Origin: Oscillospiraceae bacterium
Lineage (GTDB): Bacteria; Bacillota; Clostridia; Oscillospirales; Oscillospiraceae
Assembly (NCBI GenBank): GCA_017416325.1
Contig: JAFQCV010000008.1
Span: 1 to 32,217 of the forward strand
Length of the DNA: 32,217 nt
Reading direction: 5' to 3'
In this document: positions 3,897 through 12,643 of the stretch, one piece after another
Layout: each line of letters starts with the position of its first letter
How positions within the stretch are numbered: the stretch's first letter is position 1
Program-made: the position numbers and the translations under genes
Notes under the pieces: generated by a model
Databases searched by the model: none
What the model saw: the letters and a program-made list of their open reading frames with translations, nothing else
Told to the model about the DNA's origin: nothing

Positions 3897-4265
3897 ATGA
3901 AAAAGAGTAGTTTTGTTGCATTGATATTAGGAACAGTAAGTGGGGTGTTTTTCGCACTCGGTATGTGTATGGCACTTCTGCCGGAATGGAACGCCTTTAA
4001 TGAAGGCATAGTTTTCGGTGCTATCGGCATCGTGCTTGGCATTGTCACGGCACTTATCTGGTGCAAAATGGAAAACAAGAAACTGCCGAAAATGAGTGGT
4101 AAAAATCTGTTCCGTATTATTTACGCCGTCATTGCCGCTTTGGTACTTGGCGTGGGTATGTGTATGTGCCTTGTATGGCAGCAAATCATTTGGGGCACAC
4201 TCGTCGGTTTGCTTGGTATCATCATGCTGATTGCGCTTATTCCGATGATTAAAGGTATCAAATGA
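3897..4265 (+). CDS. Small four-helix membrane protein
   Basis: A 122-residue protein with four predicted membrane helices. It appears to be an internal duplication: the pair beginning near FFALGMCMALLPEW and the pair beginning near LGVGMCMCLVWQQ share the GMCM motif and spacing. The central loop is basic (CKMENKKLPKMSGKN). The start is set by GAAGGGAG 8 bases before the ATG, not by the longer in-frame opening at 3714. Its last bases overlap the next start as ATGA, so the two are translationally coupled. I recognise the type as a conserved small membrane protein of Firmicutes without known function. Repression by the divergent TetR-type protein is likely. Confidence 0.75.
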   Translation: MKKSSFVALILGTVSGVFFALGMCMALLPEWNAFNEGIVFGAIGIVLGIVTALIWCKMENKKLPKMSGKNLFRIIYAVIAALVLGVGMCMCLVWQQIIWGTLVGLLGIIMLIALIPMIKGIK

Positions 4266-5080
4266 AGGTATTAAATCTTGTAAGAAGTCCTTATACAAGT
4301 CTTGCGTTTAATGTTGCTTATGCACTCGGCAACTGTATTATAGGTTTTCTTGCACATTCGTGGTGGTTTATTACAGTAGGTGCGTATTATACCGTGCTTG
4401 CAATTACAAGGTTTTCTGTGTTGCAGGTCAGACGAAAAGCAAGTGGCAATTATGATACCGAGCTTTTTGCACGACGCATTACGGGAATTTTATTGGTTGT
4501 GCTTTCTTTCTGCATAGTAGGTGTGAACATAATGTCTGCTGTTAAAGATAGAGGCACCGCTTTTCACGAAATTGTAATGATCACCATTGCCACATACACA
4601 TTTACTAAAATCACCATTTCAATTATCGGTATGGTAAAAGCAAAACGTTCCGCTTCTCCGGTATTAAAGATACTCCGTAATATATCGCTCGCTGATGCGT
4701 GTGTTTCCATTTACACAATGCAAAGATCAATGCTCGTGTCTTTTCCGGGTATGGAAGCTGCGGAAATCTTATTACTAAACATATTTACAGGAACAGCAGT
4801 TTGGATTGTTGTACTGCTTCTCGGAATCAATCTGATTGGAGGAAAATATACAGATATGGCTAAATCAAAAATTGTAAAGGCAAATGAAAAAATCGCCGAA
4901 GCAGTAACCGGCGGTTACAAAAAAATTGAAAAAGGTGTAGTTGAAGGCTATAAAAAAATCGAGCAAGGTGTTGTTGATGGTTACACCAAAATCGAAGATA
5001 AGTTTGTAGATGCTTATCTCACCAAGGACGGTGAAACTGTTGAAGAAGCAAAAACAAGATTGAAAGATAAAAACAAATAG
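4262..5080 (+). CDS. Membrane protein with C-terminal 11-residue amphipathic repeats
   Basis: A 272-residue protein with about five or six membrane helices in the first 195 residues, then a highly charged tail. The tail holds four consecutive 11-residue units: GYKKIEKGVVE (218-228), GYKKIEQGVVD (229-239), GYTKIEDKFVD (240-250) and the looser AYLTKDGETVE (251-261). Periodicity of 11 with alternating Lys and Glu is typical of lipid-binding amphipathic helices, as in the synuclein and LEA families, so the tail may lie on the membrane surface. That is inference from pattern only. It is the second gene of a coupled pair under a TetR-type regulator and ends at a strong terminator. The function of the family is not known to me. 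Confidence 0.75.
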   Translation: MKVLNLVRSPYTSLAFNVAYALGNCIIGFLAHSWWFITVGAYYTVLAITRFSVLQVRRKASGNYDTELFARRITGILLVVLSFCIVGVNIMSAVKDRGTAFHEIVMITIATYTFTKITISIIGMVKAKRSASPVLKILRNISLADACVSIYTMQRSMLVSFPGMEAAEILLLNIFTGTAVWIVVLLLGINLIGGKYTDMAKSKIVKANEKIAEAVTGGYKKIEKGVVEGYKKIEQGVVDGYTKIEDKFVDAYLTKDGETVEEAKTRLKDKNK

Positions 5081-5130: not shown

Positions 5131-5290
5131 GTTTAGGTGGTTCGAATCCACCTTGTAGGTCGTTGGCATCTATGAAATTGCAACTTAAAAAATAGGGGTA
5201 AAATTAAGAAAAGCCTTGATTTCTCAAGGCTTTTCTGTGTGGCATCTAAATAGACCACAACACTTGGCAGGTTTGAACTAAATGTATATT
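5131..5290 (+). repeat. Module junction b with a perfect tRNA-like T-arm
   Basis: GGTGG-TTCGAAT-CCACC at about 5136-5152 is a perfect T-stem and loop, identical to the T-arm of the tRNA-Tyr gene at 12559-12643 but in opposite orientation and not followed by its acceptor strand. Next come TTGTAGGT and GCATCTATGAAA (matching junction a), a hairpin terminator at 5207-5236, TAGACCACA, and GTTTGAACTAAATGTATATT (5271-5290). Confidence 0.6.
5207..5236 (-). terminator. Terminator facing the HNH operon
   Basis: AGAAAAGCCTTGA-TTTC-TCAAGGCTTTTCT is a perfect 13-bp stem with A/T flanks on both strands. It lies between the convergent membrane-protein operon and the HNH operon, about 190 bases past the HNH stop codon. 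Confidence 0.65.
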
Positions 5291-5425: not shown

Positions 5426-6271
5426 TTATGGTTTCATACTCTTGGGGTCATTTTTACCAAAATACAACGGACTAGCATTATCATGCTCCTTAAGCCATGC
5501 CTGATACCCTTCAATACAAGGACCACCTAAATTAATAGCAAACTCCATACCCCATAGGGCAACAATGAAGTATAGTTCGGCTTGGACCGGGTTTTGTCCA
5601 TCATACTTGGTGATGCCAGGCATAAGAAAATCAGATTCGTGGATGATTTGATATGTTTCACCATCACTGTCAATCCACGATTTACGATGTGAGTAAATCC
5701 GTCTTATGTGACAAGGCCAAGCTCTAGGTGAGCCTCTACGTACATGATTTCTTATTGGATCAAATTGCTTATCATCAATTAACTGATCTAAACTATCATC
5801 CAAGGAACTAAGCTTATGAGCTAATGCTTCTAATGCAATTTTTCCAATGAAGCGTGAAGTAATCGAACCCTGTGGTGGAAGAAGAACATCGGTATATGCT
5901 GGTACAGTCATTTGGTAATGTTCTTGGGGATGTAATAAAATTTTAACCAACAATTCTGGTGGCATGCCTATACTGGGGATAACTTCTCCGTTGTGTATTT
6001 CTTTTTTTACTTCTACTGGAATTCCATCCCAATTGCCTTCCAACAGGGGGAATTTATTTTTCTTGCTAGGGATATCTTCTTGGAACCGCAGCAAACGCAT
6101 ATCTTCTCTTTCGAGAAAAGGCTTTTCTACTTCACGTGCCAAATAGTTATTGCATTTGTCGCAAACATATCCACGGGGAAGAGTAAGAGTCTTATTTCCA
6201 AGAGATTCAGGAATAATGTGTTCAATGCTTTTGGCTGAAGAAGAGTCTTCTTTGCAGAATAGGCATCTCAT
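5426..6271 (-). CDS. HNH endonuclease (HNH_5 type)
   Basis: A 281-residue protein starting with a treble-clef HNH module: C3 and C6, then SIEHIIPESLGN with E17 and H18, then CDKCNNY with C37, C40 and N41. This is the HNH_5 pattern found in nucleases of mobile elements and defence loci. The remaining 230 residues carry no domain I recognise; they are rich in Pro, Ile and Trp and may choose the target. It is the last gene of a three-gene unit after the GNAT-PIN fusion and the ASCH protein, 24 bases beyond the ASCH stop. The ribosome site is weak (GGTGAT). A nuclease acting on DNA or RNA is expected from the family; the substrate is unknown. Confidence 0.8.
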   Translation of the reverse strand: MRCLFCKEDSSSAKSIEHIIPESLGNKTLTLPRGYVCDKCNNYLAREVEKPFLEREDMRLLRFQEDIPSKKNKFPLLEGNWDGIPVEVKKEIHNGEVIPSIGMPPELLVKILLHPQEHYQMTVPAYTDVLLPPQGSITSRFIGKIALEALAHKLSSLDDSLDQLIDDKQFDPIRNHVRRGSPRAWPCHIRRIYSHRKSWIDSDGETYQIIHESDFLMPGITKYDGQNPVQAELYFIVALWGMEFAINLGGPCIEGYQAWLKEHDNASPLYFGKNDPKSMKP

Positions 6272-6295
6272 AATATATCACCAGACTAGGTTAGA

Positions 6296-6718
6296 TTAGT
6301 GATTCGCTCCGACCAAACGTAGAAATTGCTCTTCAGAAATATATCGATAACTTTGAGGGGCGAAAAAATCTTCTGAAATTACAGACAGGGGCTGTGGGGA
6401 TGAAAGAGTTTTTATGTCTTTTAGACATATTCCAACGCCTTCTTTTTTTCCAGCAAAATAGCTTTCAAATGCACTCCAGGCAATGCCTGCCTTCTCCTTG
6501 ACGACTTCCCAGAGCTTAGCCGGTGGCATTGATATAATAGAATCAATTTCACAATAAGCAGTAACTCTTTGGATGGGAGAGCTTTCGTAAATAACTAGGA
6601 CATCACCTGAAGATACTTTTGGAGAAGAGCAGCGAAGTTCAATCGATTTTTCCTTCGCCTTGATTTTTTGTGCATACACTGGCTTTATTGACATAAGTAA
6701 GTATCTTTTTTCAGCCAT
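6296..6718 (-). CDS. ASCH (PUA-like) domain protein
   Basis: A 140-residue protein that is essentially one ASCH domain. It shows LLMSIKPVYAQKIKAKEKSIELR near the N terminus, with K24, E27 and R29 as the family's K-x2-E-x-R signature, followed by the beta strand GDVLVIYESSP and VTAYCEI. ASCH domains are PUA-like beta barrels thought to bind RNA or modified nucleosides. The start at 6718 is chosen because GGAGG lies 7 bases upstream. It overlaps the upstream stop by 8 bases, which indicates translational coupling with the GNAT-PIN fusion. It could be the partner or antidote of the fusion protein, but nothing in the sequence proves that. Confidence 0.8.
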   Translation of the reverse strand: MAEKRYLLMSIKPVYAQKIKAKEKSIELRCSSPKVSSGDVLVIYESSPIQRVTAYCEIDSIISMPPAKLWEVVKEKAGIAWSAFESYFAGKKEGVGICLKDIKTLSSPQPLSVISEDFFAPQSYRYISEEQFLRLVGANH

Positions 6719-8798
6719 GACTACCTCCATAAACACCCGCCGTGTATATCTGTGTAAAGGCAGGCTCGTCTATTTTTGTATAAGATTGGAACGTTTCTGT
6801 GGGATTATTTATGAAATTGCGTACTTGCGCTAAAGGAATAGGATGGTCAAAAAGCTCAGTATAGCTAAAACCATACGCACTGATGAGATCGGATTTTCCG
6901 CCAACGGCTAACAGCTCAGACCAATCCAGCACACCTAGACGATGATATTTTTTGAACAGAGTTTTCTTTGTATCCGTTTCAACGTTATCTAAATAGGAAC
7001 ATGCACGAATGGCGCCAGTCTGCATATATTCAGATTGACTAACATACCACAGAATTCGTGCAGGGCCGCACGGGACACTGTGACGCTTGGATTTGAAATA
7101 CACATTTTCAATGCTAAGTGCGGGTTCAGTTTTTGTGTTGGAAAACAAAGATACATGATCGTTTGCAAGGTTCTCATCGAATAATTGAACGGCATACTCT
7201 GCTCGGATAGGCACGATATAGCAAGGAATACCAGAAGAAGTAATTTTAAGGGGCCACAGAGCTTTTTCCAAACTGAAGACAAGATCTTTGCATTCCTTCC
7301 CAGCACTGCGATCTTTTTGGTATCTGGAAATTGCAATCTGCAACGGATTGTCAGCGTGAAGAAGCGGAATTGGGCGGACCTGTTCAGGAGAAATCACACG
7401 GCTGTCAATAATACGGAGAAGTGTGGTGCCATTATTAGTAAAACCACATGCCATCAAACTCTTAACAGTATCGTCTGGTATTTTCTCTGTTGCAATCTCG
7501 ATTTGCGCAATGCCATCTTTTCTTGCACTATCCAGGATTTTAAATGCGACCCGCTTTACAAATGTGTCCAAAAGAGATGGGCGAACGGCACCGGTGGCCA
7601 CCAGAAGTGTGTTAACATATAGTCTATTCTCGGATCTAGTAGTGACAACAAAACAAAGCGGCGTGGTGTCGCTCTTAACAAGGAGAATGCTGTGCTTTTC
7701 GGGTGATGCCATCCAAGTTCTCAAAGCTAGATCAAACTCGTTTTTCTTTTCGCCATACTTATCAAAGAACGTGTTGAGTACAGTGGGGTAATCACTATGC
7801 TGCATTTTGGAAAAATCCAGGTTTAACCCGGCTAACTTTATAGGTGCATAATCAGAGGGGGATGCCAGCTCATCAACAGAGTTGACGAACTCTCCAGGAC
7901 TCATAATATCCAGATTGTATTTTGCAAAAATGTATTCTGAAATATTAGTGTTGAGCCACGCGGAATCTCTAGTAATAAATACGACAGCGCCAGCGGCAAT
8001 GGCATCAGCAATATGGCAAATATCAAACCATGTGTTGCTAAATTCAACGGATGGTTTTTGTAAGAGAAGATCTGCCTGGATTGTCTTGAATAGGTCACTG
8101 TCAGTTGACTCAGTTAATGCAAATTGTGCCTTAGCGTAGTCTCTATGGGCTTTTCTTACGGTAGGATTATCATTGCGATTGATTTCATCCAGAGCATACT
8201 TGGAGATTCGGAATTCTGCGTAGCCGGCTAAGAAGCTTTGCGTTAATGTTTTGGTTTCGTTGTTACTACCATCGTATAGGTCAATTACGATGTTAGTATC
8301 GACTACTACCTGAGTTCTTTGCTTGTCAACTTCGGATAACAGCGCAAAAATATCCTGACATTCAGTATTTCTCCGAATCCATGTAGTTAAAACCGTATCA
8401 CGCGTAGTTGCGCGTCCCTTTCGTTCATCTATGGGAGTAAACCCCAAAGACATCCAAAAGTTTTCAAGATTGTAGTCTCTCCGGCAAGAAAGCTGCATAT
8501 GAGAAATACAGTCTTTTTCTCGTTCAAACAATTCATTTACAAGAAGCTTTGCGAACCCCTTTCCTTTATGCAGCGGAGAAACACATAATTGAACGATCAC
8601 AATGGTATTCTTTCTGTACCGATACATAATGTAAGCAAGAAGTTCATCATCTTCAGTCAACGCAAGAATATGCCCCTTTTTGGCGTAGTCCACAAATGCT
8701 TCACGAGGCAGAAAGCCAACTGTGCTACTGGCACTATCTCCCAAGTTTTGCACTTTCTTTAGTAGTTTAGATCTTGCAGAAACAACGGTATAGTCCAT
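6711..8798 (-). CDS. GNAT-PIN-(GNAT-like)-ASCH-like fusion protein
   Basis: A 695-residue multidomain protein. Residues 1-140 are a GNAT acetyltransferase: VQLCVSPLHKGKGFAKLLV holds the acetyl-CoA loop and NLENFWMSLGF the usual C-terminal strand. Residues 162-310 are a PIN nuclease with VVVDTNIVIDL (D167), E205, D259/D265 and FITRDSAWL (D278), so the acidic site looks complete. Residues 335-465 look like a second, degenerate GNAT fold (VNTLLVATGAVRPSLLDTF, SLMACGF). Residues 555-670 (RILWYVSQSEYMQTGAIRACSYL) look like an ASCH/PUA-type barrel. A PIN ribonuclease joined to acetyltransferase and RNA-binding modules suggests action on RNA, perhaps tRNA. The following ASCH and HNH genes form an operon with it. 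A consensus promoter and GGGAGG site precede the start. Confidence 0.8.
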   Translation of the reverse strand: MDYTVVSARSKLLKKVQNLGDSASSTVGFLPREAFVDYAKKGHILALTEDDELLAYIMYRYRKNTIVIVQLCVSPLHKGKGFAKLLVNELFEREKDCISHMQLSCRRDYNLENFWMSLGFTPIDERKGRATTRDTVLTTWIRRNTECQDIFALLSEVDKQRTQVVVDTNIVIDLYDGSNNETKTLTQSFLAGYAEFRISKYALDEINRNDNPTVRKAHRDYAKAQFALTESTDSDLFKTIQADLLLQKPSVEFSNTWFDICHIADAIAAGAVVFITRDSAWLNTNISEYIFAKYNLDIMSPGEFVNSVDELASPSDYAPIKLAGLNLDFSKMQHSDYPTVLNTFFDKYGEKKNEFDLALRTWMASPEKHSILLVKSDTTPLCFVVTTRSENRLYVNTLLVATGAVRPSLLDTFVKRVAFKILDSARKDGIAQIEIATEKIPDDTVKSLMACGFTNNGTTLLRIIDSRVISPEQVRPIPLLHADNPLQIAISRYQKDRSAGKECKDLVFSLEKALWPLKITSSGIPCYIVPIRAEYAVQLFDENLANDHVSLFSNTKTEPALSIENVYFKSKRHSVPCGPARILWYVSQSEYMQTGAIRACSYLDNVETDTKKTLFKKYHRLGVLDWSELLAVGGKSDLISAYGFSYTELFDHPIPLAQVRNFINNPTETFQSYTKIDEPAFTQIYTAGVYGGSHG

Positions 8799-8833: not shown

Positions 8834-8862
8834 ATTATAGCAAAGTATTTCCATTCTTTCAA
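8834..8862 (-). promoter_or_regulatory. Promoter of the GNAT-PIN/ASCH/HNH operon
   Basis: On the minus strand TTGAAA (8857-8862) and a perfect TATAAT (8834-8839) are separated by 17 bases, about 36 bases before the ATG at 8798. It is near consensus, so constitutive expression is plausible. Confidence 0.8.
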
Positions 8863-8869
8863 TGAAATC

Positions 8870-9108
8870 CTTTAAAGGTGAATTCGAATTGATTGTTTTG
8901 TTGTTAAGACCTGGCATAGACAATTATACGGTTATTTCCGTACGACTTAATCTAGAGCAATTATGCTTTTGACCTATCCCATAATGCGTTGCTTCTATCG
9001 AGCTACAGATGTAATCCTAACTCGCAGGAAGTTGGGTATGAGCTACAACATAATGTCCTAGAGAGCAAGAAATGTGCTGCTAAGAAACCACTATGTGCAT
9101 TGTAAAAA
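8870..9108. other. Non-coding interval, nothing recognised
   Basis: About 240 bases between the GNAT-PIN promoter and the terminator repeat. I see no convincing reading frame, tRNA or known RNA. The only structure noted is a weak 5-bp hairpin TACGG-TTATTT-CCGTA near 8930. Confidence 0.4.
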
Positions 9109-9157
9109 AACAACCATAGTTATCTAACACCTGGGTGTTCGAATTACTATGGTTGTT
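9109..9157 (-). terminator. Terminator, 49-bp copy of the tRNA-Tyr terminator
   Basis: AACAACCATAGT and ACTATGGTTGTT form a perfect 12-bp outer stem, with an inner AACACC-TG-GGTGTT hairpin and a TTCGAAT segment. On the minus strand a run of seven T follows, so it ends the three-gene operon above it. It matches 12505-12553 at 46 of 49 positions with no gap. Confidence 0.8.
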
Positions 9158-9165
9158 CCAAAAAT

Positions 9166-12487: not shown

Positions 12488-12504
12488 TGCAATGCAAAAA
12501 CAAA

Positions 12505-12553
12505 AACAACCATAGTCGTCCAACACCTGGGTGTTCGAATTACTATGGTTGTT
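12505..12553 (-). terminator. Terminator of the tRNA-Thr/tRNA-Tyr operon
   Basis: The same 49-bp two-tier hairpin as at 9109-9157 (46 of 49 identical), here 6 bases after the CCA end of tRNA-Tyr. On the minus strand it is followed by TTTTTGTTTTTG. This location makes it the probable original of the pair. Confidence 0.85.
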
Positions 12554-12558
12554 TCAGT

Positions 12559-12643
12559 TGGTGGGGGATGGTGGATTCGAACCACCGAAGGCATAGCCAG
12601 CAGATTTACAGTCTGTCCCCTTTGGCCACTCGGGAAATCCCCC
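12559..12643 (-). tRNA. tRNA-Tyr (GTA)
   Basis: Acceptor GGGGGAT pairs with ATCCCCC, the discriminator is A and CCA is encoded. The anticodon loop CTGTAAA gives anticodon GTA for tyrosine. A long variable arm makes it class II, as expected for bacterial tRNA-Tyr, and the T-arm is GGTGG-TTCGAAT-CCACC. It is the second gene of the operon, 38 bases after tRNA-Thr. Confidence 0.96.

What the first reader, a model, noticed from the sequence alone, without database searches (positions are those of the whole stretch)
5426..8798. GNAT-PIN-(GNAT-like)-ASCH-like fusion with ASCH and HNH partners: candidate RNA-targeting toxin or defence system
A single 695-residue protein combines an acetyltransferase, a PIN nuclease with a complete acidic site, a degenerate second GNAT fold and an ASCH-like barrel. 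It is translationally coupled to a free ASCH protein and followed by an HNH_5 nuclease. The operon has a near-consensus promoter and lies in an accessory array. PIN and GNAT toxins both act on translation RNAs, and ASCH domains are thought to bind RNA. I know no named system with this layout.
Basis: partly seen in the sequence, partly recalled or inferred. Interest (0 to 1): 0.75.

Follow-up and report, generated by a model that had tools for sequence, protein, structure and literature searches.

The report
Double-acetyltransferase PIN-EVE toxin-antitoxin-like module
The window holds an enlarged form of a known but untested family of predicted bacterial toxin-antitoxin or anti-phage genes, in which a protein with two acetyltransferase folds, a predicted RNA-cutting domain and a predicted modified-base-reading domain is paired with a small ASCH partner and a predicted DNA-cutting enzyme.

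Summary
In detail: three same-strand genes, a 695-aa fusion (8798-6711), an overlapping 140-aa ASCH gene and an HNH_5 gene 24 nt further on. But the layout is not nameless. The fusion is a long form of the predicted (PIN)-GNAT-EVE proteins of Bell et al. 2020 (PADLOC PDC-M11A). The ASCH gene is PDC-M11B, whose phage relative is deposited as GevA "antitoxin" beside GevT "toxin". What differs: an extra N-terminal GNAT stands before PIN-GNAT-EVE, and the inner GNAT has lost its acetyl-CoA loop. This form occurs in at least seven bacterial groups, with the ASCH gene next to 17 of 18 full-length copies examined. The four PIN acids are present in 12 of 12 non-cyanobacterial copies; 8 of 9 cyanobacterial copies have lost three of them, and all 9 loci carry McrB and/or McrC. 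The HNH gene lies by this family in 4 of 12 other HNH contexts examined, and in only 2 of 21 long-form loci. I read it as an acetylating, modified-base-reading, toxin-antitoxin-like module with exchangeable nuclease arms. The target (RNA or DNA) is not shown, and no fold could be predicted. New variant of a known kind.

The parts
6711..8798 (-). 695-aa fusion gene GNAT1-PIN-pseudoGNAT-EVE (long-form PDC-M11A)
8364..8798 (-). GNAT1 (residues 1-145), added acetyltransferase with K78-x-x-G81-x-A83 and the CRRDY..W..GF signature
   Evidence: (Acetyltransf_1 in 13 of 13)
7863..8321 (-). PIN domain (residues 160-312); D167, E205, D259, D278 present
7389..7811 (-). degenerate GNAT (residues 330-470), positional counterpart of the only GNAT of GevT and PIN-GNAT-EVE proteins, acetyl-CoA loop lost
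6729..7265 (-). EVE domain of the PUA/ASCH superfamily (residues 512-690)
6296..6718 (-). ASCH partner protein, PDC-M11B / GevA family (140 aa), 8-nt overlap with the fusion gene
5426..6271 (-). HNH_5 endonuclease gene (281 aa), intact CxxC..EH..CxxCN motif
8834..8862 (-). promoter-like site TTGAAA-17-TATAAT, 11 of 12 with TG extension, upstream of the fusion gene (number of such sites in the region is no more than chance)
5207..5236 (-). terminator-like hairpin downstream of the HNH gene (9 such sites in the region against 3.3, sd 1.7, in shuffles)

Best explanation
This is a long-form member of the predicted (PIN)-GNAT-EVE + ASCH module (PADLOC PDC-M11, phage GevT/GevA): a toxin-antitoxin-like unit against phages or other mobile DNA, carried in an accessory region. 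Shown by sequence: an added, intact-looking GNAT1 stands before a collinear PIN-GNAT-EVE whose own GNAT has lost its cofactor loop; the ASCH gene is coupled to it; an HNH_5 nuclease follows. Inferred: the EVE domain docks on a nucleic acid carrying a modified base, most likely RNA such as tRNA; GNAT1 acetylates it or its aminoacyl group; PIN cleaves it; the ASCH protein binds the same kind of nucleic acid or the toxin and holds it in check until infection disturbs the balance; HNH adds a DNA-cutting arm. The best-conserved parts are GNAT1 and EVE, so acetylation guided by base reading is probably the core activity, with PIN, HNH or McrBC as exchangeable nuclease arms.
For: Membership: PADLOC PDC-M11B E 3e-37 and PDC-M11A E 8e-9. 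Profile matches of PIN, middle domain and EVE to the same domains, in the same order, of PIN-GNAT-EVE/GNAT-EVE proteins (96.7%, 89%, 97.6%). ASCH next to 16 of 17 full-length long-form genes with downstream DNA, plus the window, i.e. 17 of 18. In 398 genomes of the phylum 21 hold PDC-M11B at E 1e-10, and 17 of the 21 have a GNAT-EVE or long-form match beside it. Toxin/antitoxin reading: record PV340567.1 names the GNAT-EVE protein 'GevT toxin' and its ASCH neighbour 'GevA antitoxin'. RNA: the closest solved relative of the ASCH partner, ZmASCH (E 6e-29), binds nucleic acid and cleaves single-stranded RNA (PMC5615036: abstract, passages, section 16). Core versus arms: identity to the window, averaged over 16 complete relatives, is 0.35 for GNAT1 and 0.35 for EVE against 0.24 for PIN and 0.19 for the middle domain; the four PIN acids are present in 12 of 12 non-cyanobacterial copies, three of four lost in 8 of 9 cyanobacterial ones; all 9 of those loci carry McrB and/or McrC close by. 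HNH: both HNH-bearing genomes among 398 have it by the module; 3 of 8 HNH-bearing plasmid records have the ASCH within 3 kb.
Against: No activity of any part is shown here; Bell et al. state that none of these modules had been characterised. GevT/GevA is a depositor's label; no paper on it was found. Bell et al. suggest that the ASCH partners bind modified DNA, not RNA. No fold model could be made. EVE is weak by direct search (Pfam EVE in 3 of 23 members, best E 0.02) and the PIN alignment finds no solved relative. GNAT1 matches the short-form GNAT almost as well as the middle domain does (84.6%, E 7e-6), so calling the middle domain its counterpart rests also on its place between PIN and EVE. 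The window's ASCH has Gln50 where ZmASCH has Lys53, one of three residues tested there. HNH relatives stand without this module in 8 of the 13 contexts counted, the window included (flanks of some viral loci are short), and HNH is at only 2 of 21 long-form loci. The McrBC correlation rests on related cyanobacteria and may be one event. Short forms are common on phages and prophages (24 phage records with an ASCH relative), which fits a selfish as well as a defence role. GNAT1 has Trp115 near where many GNATs have a catalytic Tyr (recalled, not tested), and 4 of 21 long forms lack Gly81.
Confidence: 0.5

Rival explanations
1. A DNA-marking system: GNAT1 acetylates a base in host DNA, EVE and ASCH read modified bases, and HNH (or McrBC, or a neighbouring restriction system) cuts DNA with the wrong mark. 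PIN is accessory. Bell et al. credit the base-acetylation idea to Iyer et al. 2013, which was not readable here.
For: Restriction-type neighbours: McrB and/or McrC in 9 of 9 cyanobacterial loci counted; Eco57I-type methylase in Prevotella and in an Acidimicrobiaceae locus next to an SNF2-PLD helicase; DUF1156 methylase plus DUF499 before the fusion in G399; Eco29kI and a cytosine methyltransferase before it in Calothrix. Bell et al. infer from HTH-ASCH and HsdS-ASCH fusions that the ASCH partners bind modified DNA. HNH is a DNA-nuclease family. PIN is decayed in cyanobacteria while GNAT1 and EVE persist.
Against: Defence genes cluster whatever their target. 5 of 8 non-cyanobacterial loci with scanned neighbours (window, L014, L015, L018, L020) show no recognised modification or restriction system besides the window's HNH, though outside the window only one to three neighbours per locus were scanned. 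PIN domains and the ZmASCH biochemistry point to RNA. No methylase was recognised near the window's HNH.
Confidence: 0.25
2. The fusion-ASCH pair is one module and the HNH gene is an independent defence gene that lies next to it only because both collect in the same islands. (Not exclusive of the other readings.)
For: HNH relatives occur without the pair in 8 of 13 contexts counted: L024-L026 and viral contigs L053-L057. In Rhizobium and Azospirillum the HNH gene converges on the pair rather than sharing its strand. Only 2 of 21 long-form loci searched have it.
Against: Three loci (window, Prevotella, G463) have HNH on the same strand next to the module: 24 nt, 7 nt, and in G463 378 nt from the module's AAA_17 gene. 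Co-occurrence is above chance: 2 of 2 HNH genomes among the 21 ASCH genomes of 398, hypergeometric P 0.003; 3 of 8 HNH plasmid records among 42 of 72,556, P 1e-8 (genomes and records are not independent, and island clustering alone would also give this).
Confidence: 0.45
3. The proposal of Bell et al.: GNAT-EVE is a phage-side toxin acting on aminoacyl-tRNA, and proteins with PIN are host counter-measures that degrade the acetylated tRNA.
For: Short GNAT-EVE/ASCH pairs sit in phages and prophages; no match to the long form was found in phage records or viral contigs.
Against: The long form carries its own intact-looking GNAT and keeps it where PIN has decayed, the reverse of what a PIN-based counter-measure would keep.
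Confidence: 0.08
4. The ASCH protein is an enzyme antitoxin that removes the acetyl group placed by GNAT1, as E. coli YqfB hydrolyses N4-acetylcytidine.
For: Same superfamily; the Lys and Arg essential in YqfB (Lys21, Arg26; PMC6972931, passages) correspond by motif to K24 and R29, invariant in 19 of 19 ASCH partners.
Against: The YqfB nucleophile Thr24 corresponds to Glu27 in 19 of 19; Thr24Ala was inactive in YqfB. The correspondence was read from the motif spacing, not from a computed alignment.
Confidence: 0.07
5. A ribosome or tRNA modification factor of ordinary metabolism, not a defence or conflict gene.
For: The best named GNAT match is RimI-like (E 2e-5, far below its cut-off).
Against: Not found in 60 of 60 other genomes of the genus, found in 6 of 398 of the phylum including its own and including partial matches, low-G+C region, plasmid copies, restriction-type neighbours in several other hosts.
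Confidence: 0.06

Closest known systems
(PIN)-GNAT-EVE proteins with ASCH partner (Bell, Wolf, Koonin 2020, PMC7641849; after Iyer et al. 2013)
   Same: PIN, GNAT-type domain and EVE in the same order; ASCH gene next to it; restriction-type neighbours in several relatives
   Different: An extra N-terminal GNAT carries the cofactor loop, the inner GNAT is degenerate; no AAA_17 gene recognised in the window; an HNH_5 gene instead. 'N-terminal GNAT' does not occur in that paper's main text; figures and supplements were not seen
PADLOC PDC-M11A / PDC-M11B candidate defence pair
   Same: ASCH partner matches PDC-M11B E 3e-37; EVE end matches PDC-M11A E 8e-9
   Different: The six PDC-M11A models met have 357-501 positions; their best stretches in the four long-form relatives scanned begin after GNAT1, and in the window cover only the EVE end
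GevT/GevA of Escherichia phage PhiR47_2 (PV340567.1)
   Same: GNAT-EVE plus ASCH pair, overlapping genes; deposited as toxin and antitoxin
   Different: 357 aa, one GNAT, no PIN, no HNH beside it, lambda-like phage
ZmASCH of Zymomonas mobilis (PDB 5gus, 5guq, 5y6b, 5y6c)
   Same: Same ASCH family (E 6e-29); Tyr47, Gln127 and Ser128 correspond to Y44, Q122, S123
   Different: Lys53 corresponds to Gln50 in the window; RNase activity not tested for the window protein
Septu PtuB HNH nucleases
   Same: CxxC-type HNH end, weak match E 0.003
   Different: No PtuA ATPase recognised next to it; match covers about 80 residues

Membership tests
(PIN)-GNAT-EVE + ASCH module (PDC-M11) | C-terminal EVE/PUA-like domain of this family | tested here: met
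   PADLOC E 8e-9; profile 97.6% to EVE of the shorter members; 97.9% to the ASCH family. Direct Pfam EVE match in 3 of 23 members, the window not among them
(PIN)-GNAT-EVE + ASCH module (PDC-M11) | GNAT-type domain directly before EVE | tested here: met
   Profile of residues 313-500 matches the short-form GNAT, 89%, E 2e-6, but degenerate: no glycine loop at that place in the 21 rows printed; regex [QRK]xxGx[GA] anywhere in the domain 3 of 21 (window included, away from the loop) against 16 of 21 in GNAT1
(PIN)-GNAT-EVE + ASCH module (PDC-M11) | PIN domain before the GNAT (PIN subclass) | tested here: met
   Pfam PIN E 4e-4 just under cut-off; profile 96.7%; four acids present
(PIN)-GNAT-EVE + ASCH module (PDC-M11) | ASCH gene in the operon | tested here: met
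   PDC-M11B E 3e-37, 8-nt overlap
(PIN)-GNAT-EVE + ASCH module (PDC-M11) | AAA_17 ATPase often present | tested here: not met
   None of the adjacent window ORFs matches AAA_17; the feature is stated as frequent, not defining. It is present in G463
Toxin-antitoxin system | Toxicity of the fusion neutralised by the ASCH protein | not testable with these tools
   Only a depositor's naming of relatives
GNAT toxins acting on aminoacyl-tRNA | Intact acetyl-CoA loop and transfer to aminoacyl-tRNA | tested here: inconclusive
   Loop present in GNAT1 of the window (K78xxG81xA83); substrate not testable
YqfB-type ASCH amidohydrolase | Thr nucleophile in K-x-x-T-x-R | tested here: not met
   Glu in 19 of 19 partners (YqfB residues)
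ZmASCH-type ssRNase | Tyr47, Lys53, Ser128 | tested here: inconclusive
   Tyr and Ser kept, Lys is Gln in the window
Septu (PtuAB) | PtuA-like ATPase next to the HNH gene | tested here: not met
   No ATPase recognised among the ORFs next to the HNH gene that were given to Pfam

The most novel reading that the evidence does not exclude
A so far undescribed branch of this family moved its working acetyltransferase to the N-terminus. In it, acetylation guided by modified-base reading (GNAT1 + EVE, with ASCH as brake) is the fixed core, and the nuclease is an exchangeable arm: PIN in most lineages, HNH_5 added in some, McrBC in cyanobacteria where the PIN site has decayed. If so, the acetyl mark itself, not PIN cleavage, is the primary effector or the tag that directs the nuclease.
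Probability: 0.3. Interest if true: 0.65.

Novelty: new variant of a known kind. Interest (0 to 1): 0.45.

Why it matters
The family is widespread, predicted and, as of Bell et al. 2020, untested: whether it acts on RNA or DNA has been open since 2013 on their account. The long form separates the working GNAT from the EVE-linked one. The natural copies with a decayed PIN site and linked McrBC, and the HNH-linked copies, are ready-made comparisons for finding which activity does the work and what is acetylated.

Tried and rejected
Phage records: no match to the whole fusion at E 1e-5 or to GNAT1 at E 1e-3. Viral contigs: no relative of the fusion. First genome-contig scan with the single protein: none; the alignment found 15. 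The long-form profile found only GNAT chains among solved structures, best E 0.002; the PIN alignment found no solved PIN structure; the HNH alignment nothing convincing. Papers naming PDC-M11: none. GevT/GevA: one search was swamped by the surname Geva and only 20 of 10,526 papers were listed; one search found one paper that uses a related PhiR47 phage and has no toxin in it (passages). That the ASCH is a deacetylase was considered and judged unlikely on the missing nucleophile. That the separate GNAT gene beside GNAT-EVE in Pseudomonas and Nitrosophilus is the free form of GNAT1 was tested: no match of either to a GNAT1 region at E 1, so not supported. That GNAT1 relatives belong to the GNAT-TGT systems of PMC12839542 (passages) was a guess: the ORF that I took for TGT-like has no Pfam match, so it stays unproved. 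An integrative-element origin of the operon with clean att sites was looked for; the longest direct repeat brackets the neighbouring 3.4 kb, not the operon. My ORF tiling missed ASCH in G425 and L014; corrected. On checking this report I mended the number of long-form loci searched for HNH (21, not 19), the PIN loss in the ninth cyanobacterial copy (one residue, not several as in my notebook), and the wording on GNAT1 against the middle domain; one rival (Bell et al.'s own) was added with 0.08 and two minor rivals lowered by 0.01 each.


Full report
WHAT IS THERE. Three genes run on the minus strand: a 695-aa fusion (8798-6711), a 140-aa ASCH protein (6718-6296, 8-nt overlap) and a 281-aa HNH_5 protein (6271-5426, 24 nt further). 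Pfam finds GNAT at 40-127, PIN at 164-281 (just under cut-off), ASCH and HNH_5. A promoter-like site of 11 of 12 matches lies about 35 nt before the fusion ATG; the number of promoter-like sites in the region (13) is what shuffles give (11.3, sd 3.3). The region has G+C 0.36-0.45 against 0.51-0.57 between 13 and 29 kb. None of the 60 other genomes of the same genus has a match to the fusion at E 0.001; many of them are incomplete.

WHAT FAMILY. PADLOC identifies the ASCH protein as PDC-M11B (E 3e-37) and the fusion's end as PDC-M11A (E 8e-9). Bell et al. 2020 (PMC7641849; passages and section 9, not the whole text) describe EVE fused to the C-terminus of a GNAT-like domain, often with a PIN domain at the N-terminus, in operons that almost all encode an ASCH protein and often an AAA_17 ATPase. 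They note type I restriction systems near the PIN forms and prophages for the GNAT-EVE forms, predict toxin-antitoxin roles, suggest that PIN points to RNA and that the ASCH partners bind modified DNA, and report that Iyer et al. 2013 proposed base acetylation (that paper is not held). In phage PhiR47_2 the pair is deposited as GevT toxin and GevA antitoxin.

WHAT IS DIFFERENT. Full-length relatives of about 685-750 aa were found on plasmids of Nostoc, Prevotella and Calothrix and among 15 genome loci, some truncated or broken, of cyanobacteria, Acidimicrobiaceae, Polyangia, Verrucomicrobia, Deltaproteobacteria and Anaerolineae, plus a diverged one in Caulobacter. In 398 genomes of the window's own phylum 6 matched, the window's own included; two others are full-length (G399, G425), one is split at contig ends (G209), one is a piece (G420) and one is only a GNAT (G126). 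Profile comparison places the PIN (96.7%), the middle domain (89%, E 2e-6) and EVE (97.6%) on the same domains of PIN-GNAT-EVE/GNAT-EVE proteins, in the same order. GNAT1 matches that GNAT nearly as well (84.6%, E 7e-6) and does not match the middle domain (about 2% or less), so the assignment also rests on position; single-sequence matches run collinearly through the three domains in some pairs (Rhodococcus 3-458 on Verrucomicrobia 168-654, E 2e-4; L006 356-697 and L020 170-405 on PDC-M11A models). So the long form is best read as an added GNAT plus a whole PIN-GNAT-EVE. In 21 long forms a [QRK]xxGx[GA] motif is found in GNAT1 of 16 and in the middle domain of 3; the window is one of the 3, its middle domain's only visible fit (RKDGIA) lying away from the loop position. 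GNAT1 and EVE are the best conserved parts: identity to the window 0.35 and 0.35, PIN 0.24, middle 0.19, over 16 complete relatives; mean pairwise 0.50, 0.47, 0.36, 0.33 over these 17 sequences, many of them cyanobacterial (four rows, two truncated, one split and the diverged Caulobacter, were left out of these averages).

PARTNERS. ASCH follows 16 of 17 full-length long forms with downstream DNA, the exception being L018; counting the window, 17 of 18. Three truncated or broken copies (L013, L016, L017) have none, two of them at contig ends. In the phylum 21 of 398 genomes hold PDC-M11B at E 1e-10 and 17 of the 21 have a GNAT-EVE or long-form match beside it, one of them only a short stretch and one on the other strand. 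HNH: P0003 relatives are in 2 of 398 phylum genomes, its own included; the other one, G463, has HNH, AAA_17, PIN-GNAT-EVE and ASCH in a row on one strand. On plasmids 8 of 72,556 records hold an HNH match at E 0.001; 3 of these have the ASCH within 3 kb (Prevotella same strand, Rhizobium and Azospirillum convergent). Three other plasmid contexts (L024-L026) and five viral contigs (L053-L057) do not, within flanks that are short for L055 and L056; two partial plasmid hits (H56, H57) and one partial viral hit (L058) were not counted. So 5 of 13 contexts, the window included, or 4 of 12 without it. From the other side, HNH is at 2 of 21 long-form loci searched. Neighbouring restriction-type genes: McrB and/or McrC in 9 of 9 cyanobacterial loci counted (the broken L017, at a contig end, not counted); Eco57I-type methylases in Prevotella and Acidimicrobiaceae; DUF1156 methylase and DUF499 in G399; none recognised in L014, L015, L018, L020, where one to three neighbours each were scanned, or, HNH apart, near the operon in the window.

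PIN DECAY. The four positions D167/E205/D259/D278 are all acidic in 12 of 12 non-cyanobacterial long forms (one of these has Asp for E205, one Glu for D278). Eight of 9 cyanobacterial ones have lost three of the four and the ninth (truncated) has lost one. These are the loci with McrB and/or McrC. They are closely related, so this may be one event.

MECHANISM. Shown: architecture, co-occurrence, residue states. From literature: ZmASCH, same family as the partner (E 6e-29), binds nucleic acid and cleaves ssRNA, with Tyr47, Lys53 and Ser128 contributing; the window keeps Tyr and Ser but has Gln for Lys. Inferred: EVE-guided acetylation by GNAT1 with PIN cleavage, restrained by ASCH, with HNH as an added DNA arm. 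The rival with DNA as the acetylated target is kept at 0.25. A deacetylase role for ASCH is unlikely on the missing nucleophile.

LIMITS. No fold prediction could be made. Direct matches for EVE are weak, and PIN finds no solved relative. I saw no description of the double-GNAT form or of the HNH association in the passages read; the paper searches behind that were made, and they cover open-licence papers only. Figures and supplements of Bell et al. and the whole of Iyer et al. were not seen.

Noticed in passing
window 9106-9160 and 12502-12556: A 55-nt direct repeat (93% identical); the right copy contains a hairpin directly at the 3' end of tRNA-Tyr (12559-12643, minus). The two copies bracket 3.4 kb with an IS3-family transposase and three ORFs without family matches or with only sub-threshold ones: looks like an insertion beside a tRNA pair, next to but not including the operon.
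   Followed up: partly
window 5133-5159: A lone tRNA T-arm (stem-loop GGTGG-TTCGAAT-CCACC) where ARAGORN finds no tRNA, near the left side of the operon; possibly a remnant of a tRNA-integrated element.
   Followed up: partly
L027 5413-6009; L028 6967-7482: In Pseudomonas and Nitrosophilus plasmids a separate GNAT gene sits by the GNAT-EVE module; the two resemble each other (46%) and weakly the family's inner GNAT, not GNAT1.
   Followed up: partly
L052 5986-12142; L044 107-964: GNAT1-like acetyltransferases outside the family: in Oscillatoria before a 277-aa ORF and a 1301-aa protein with a weak, below-cut-off BrxC/D match, in G126 before a 130-aa ORF of unknown family; possibly other defence systems using the same GNAT type.
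   Followed up: partly
L024, L025, L026, L053-L057: The HNH_5 subfamily also occurs without this module in the DNA held, near ABC-three-component or AAA genes on rhizobial plasmids and on viral contigs; it may be a defence gene of its own.
   Followed up: partly
window 4262-5080 and 363-1376: Two ORFs (272 and 337 aa) of the low-G+C region without a Pfam or NCBIfam match in the searches made.
   Followed up: no
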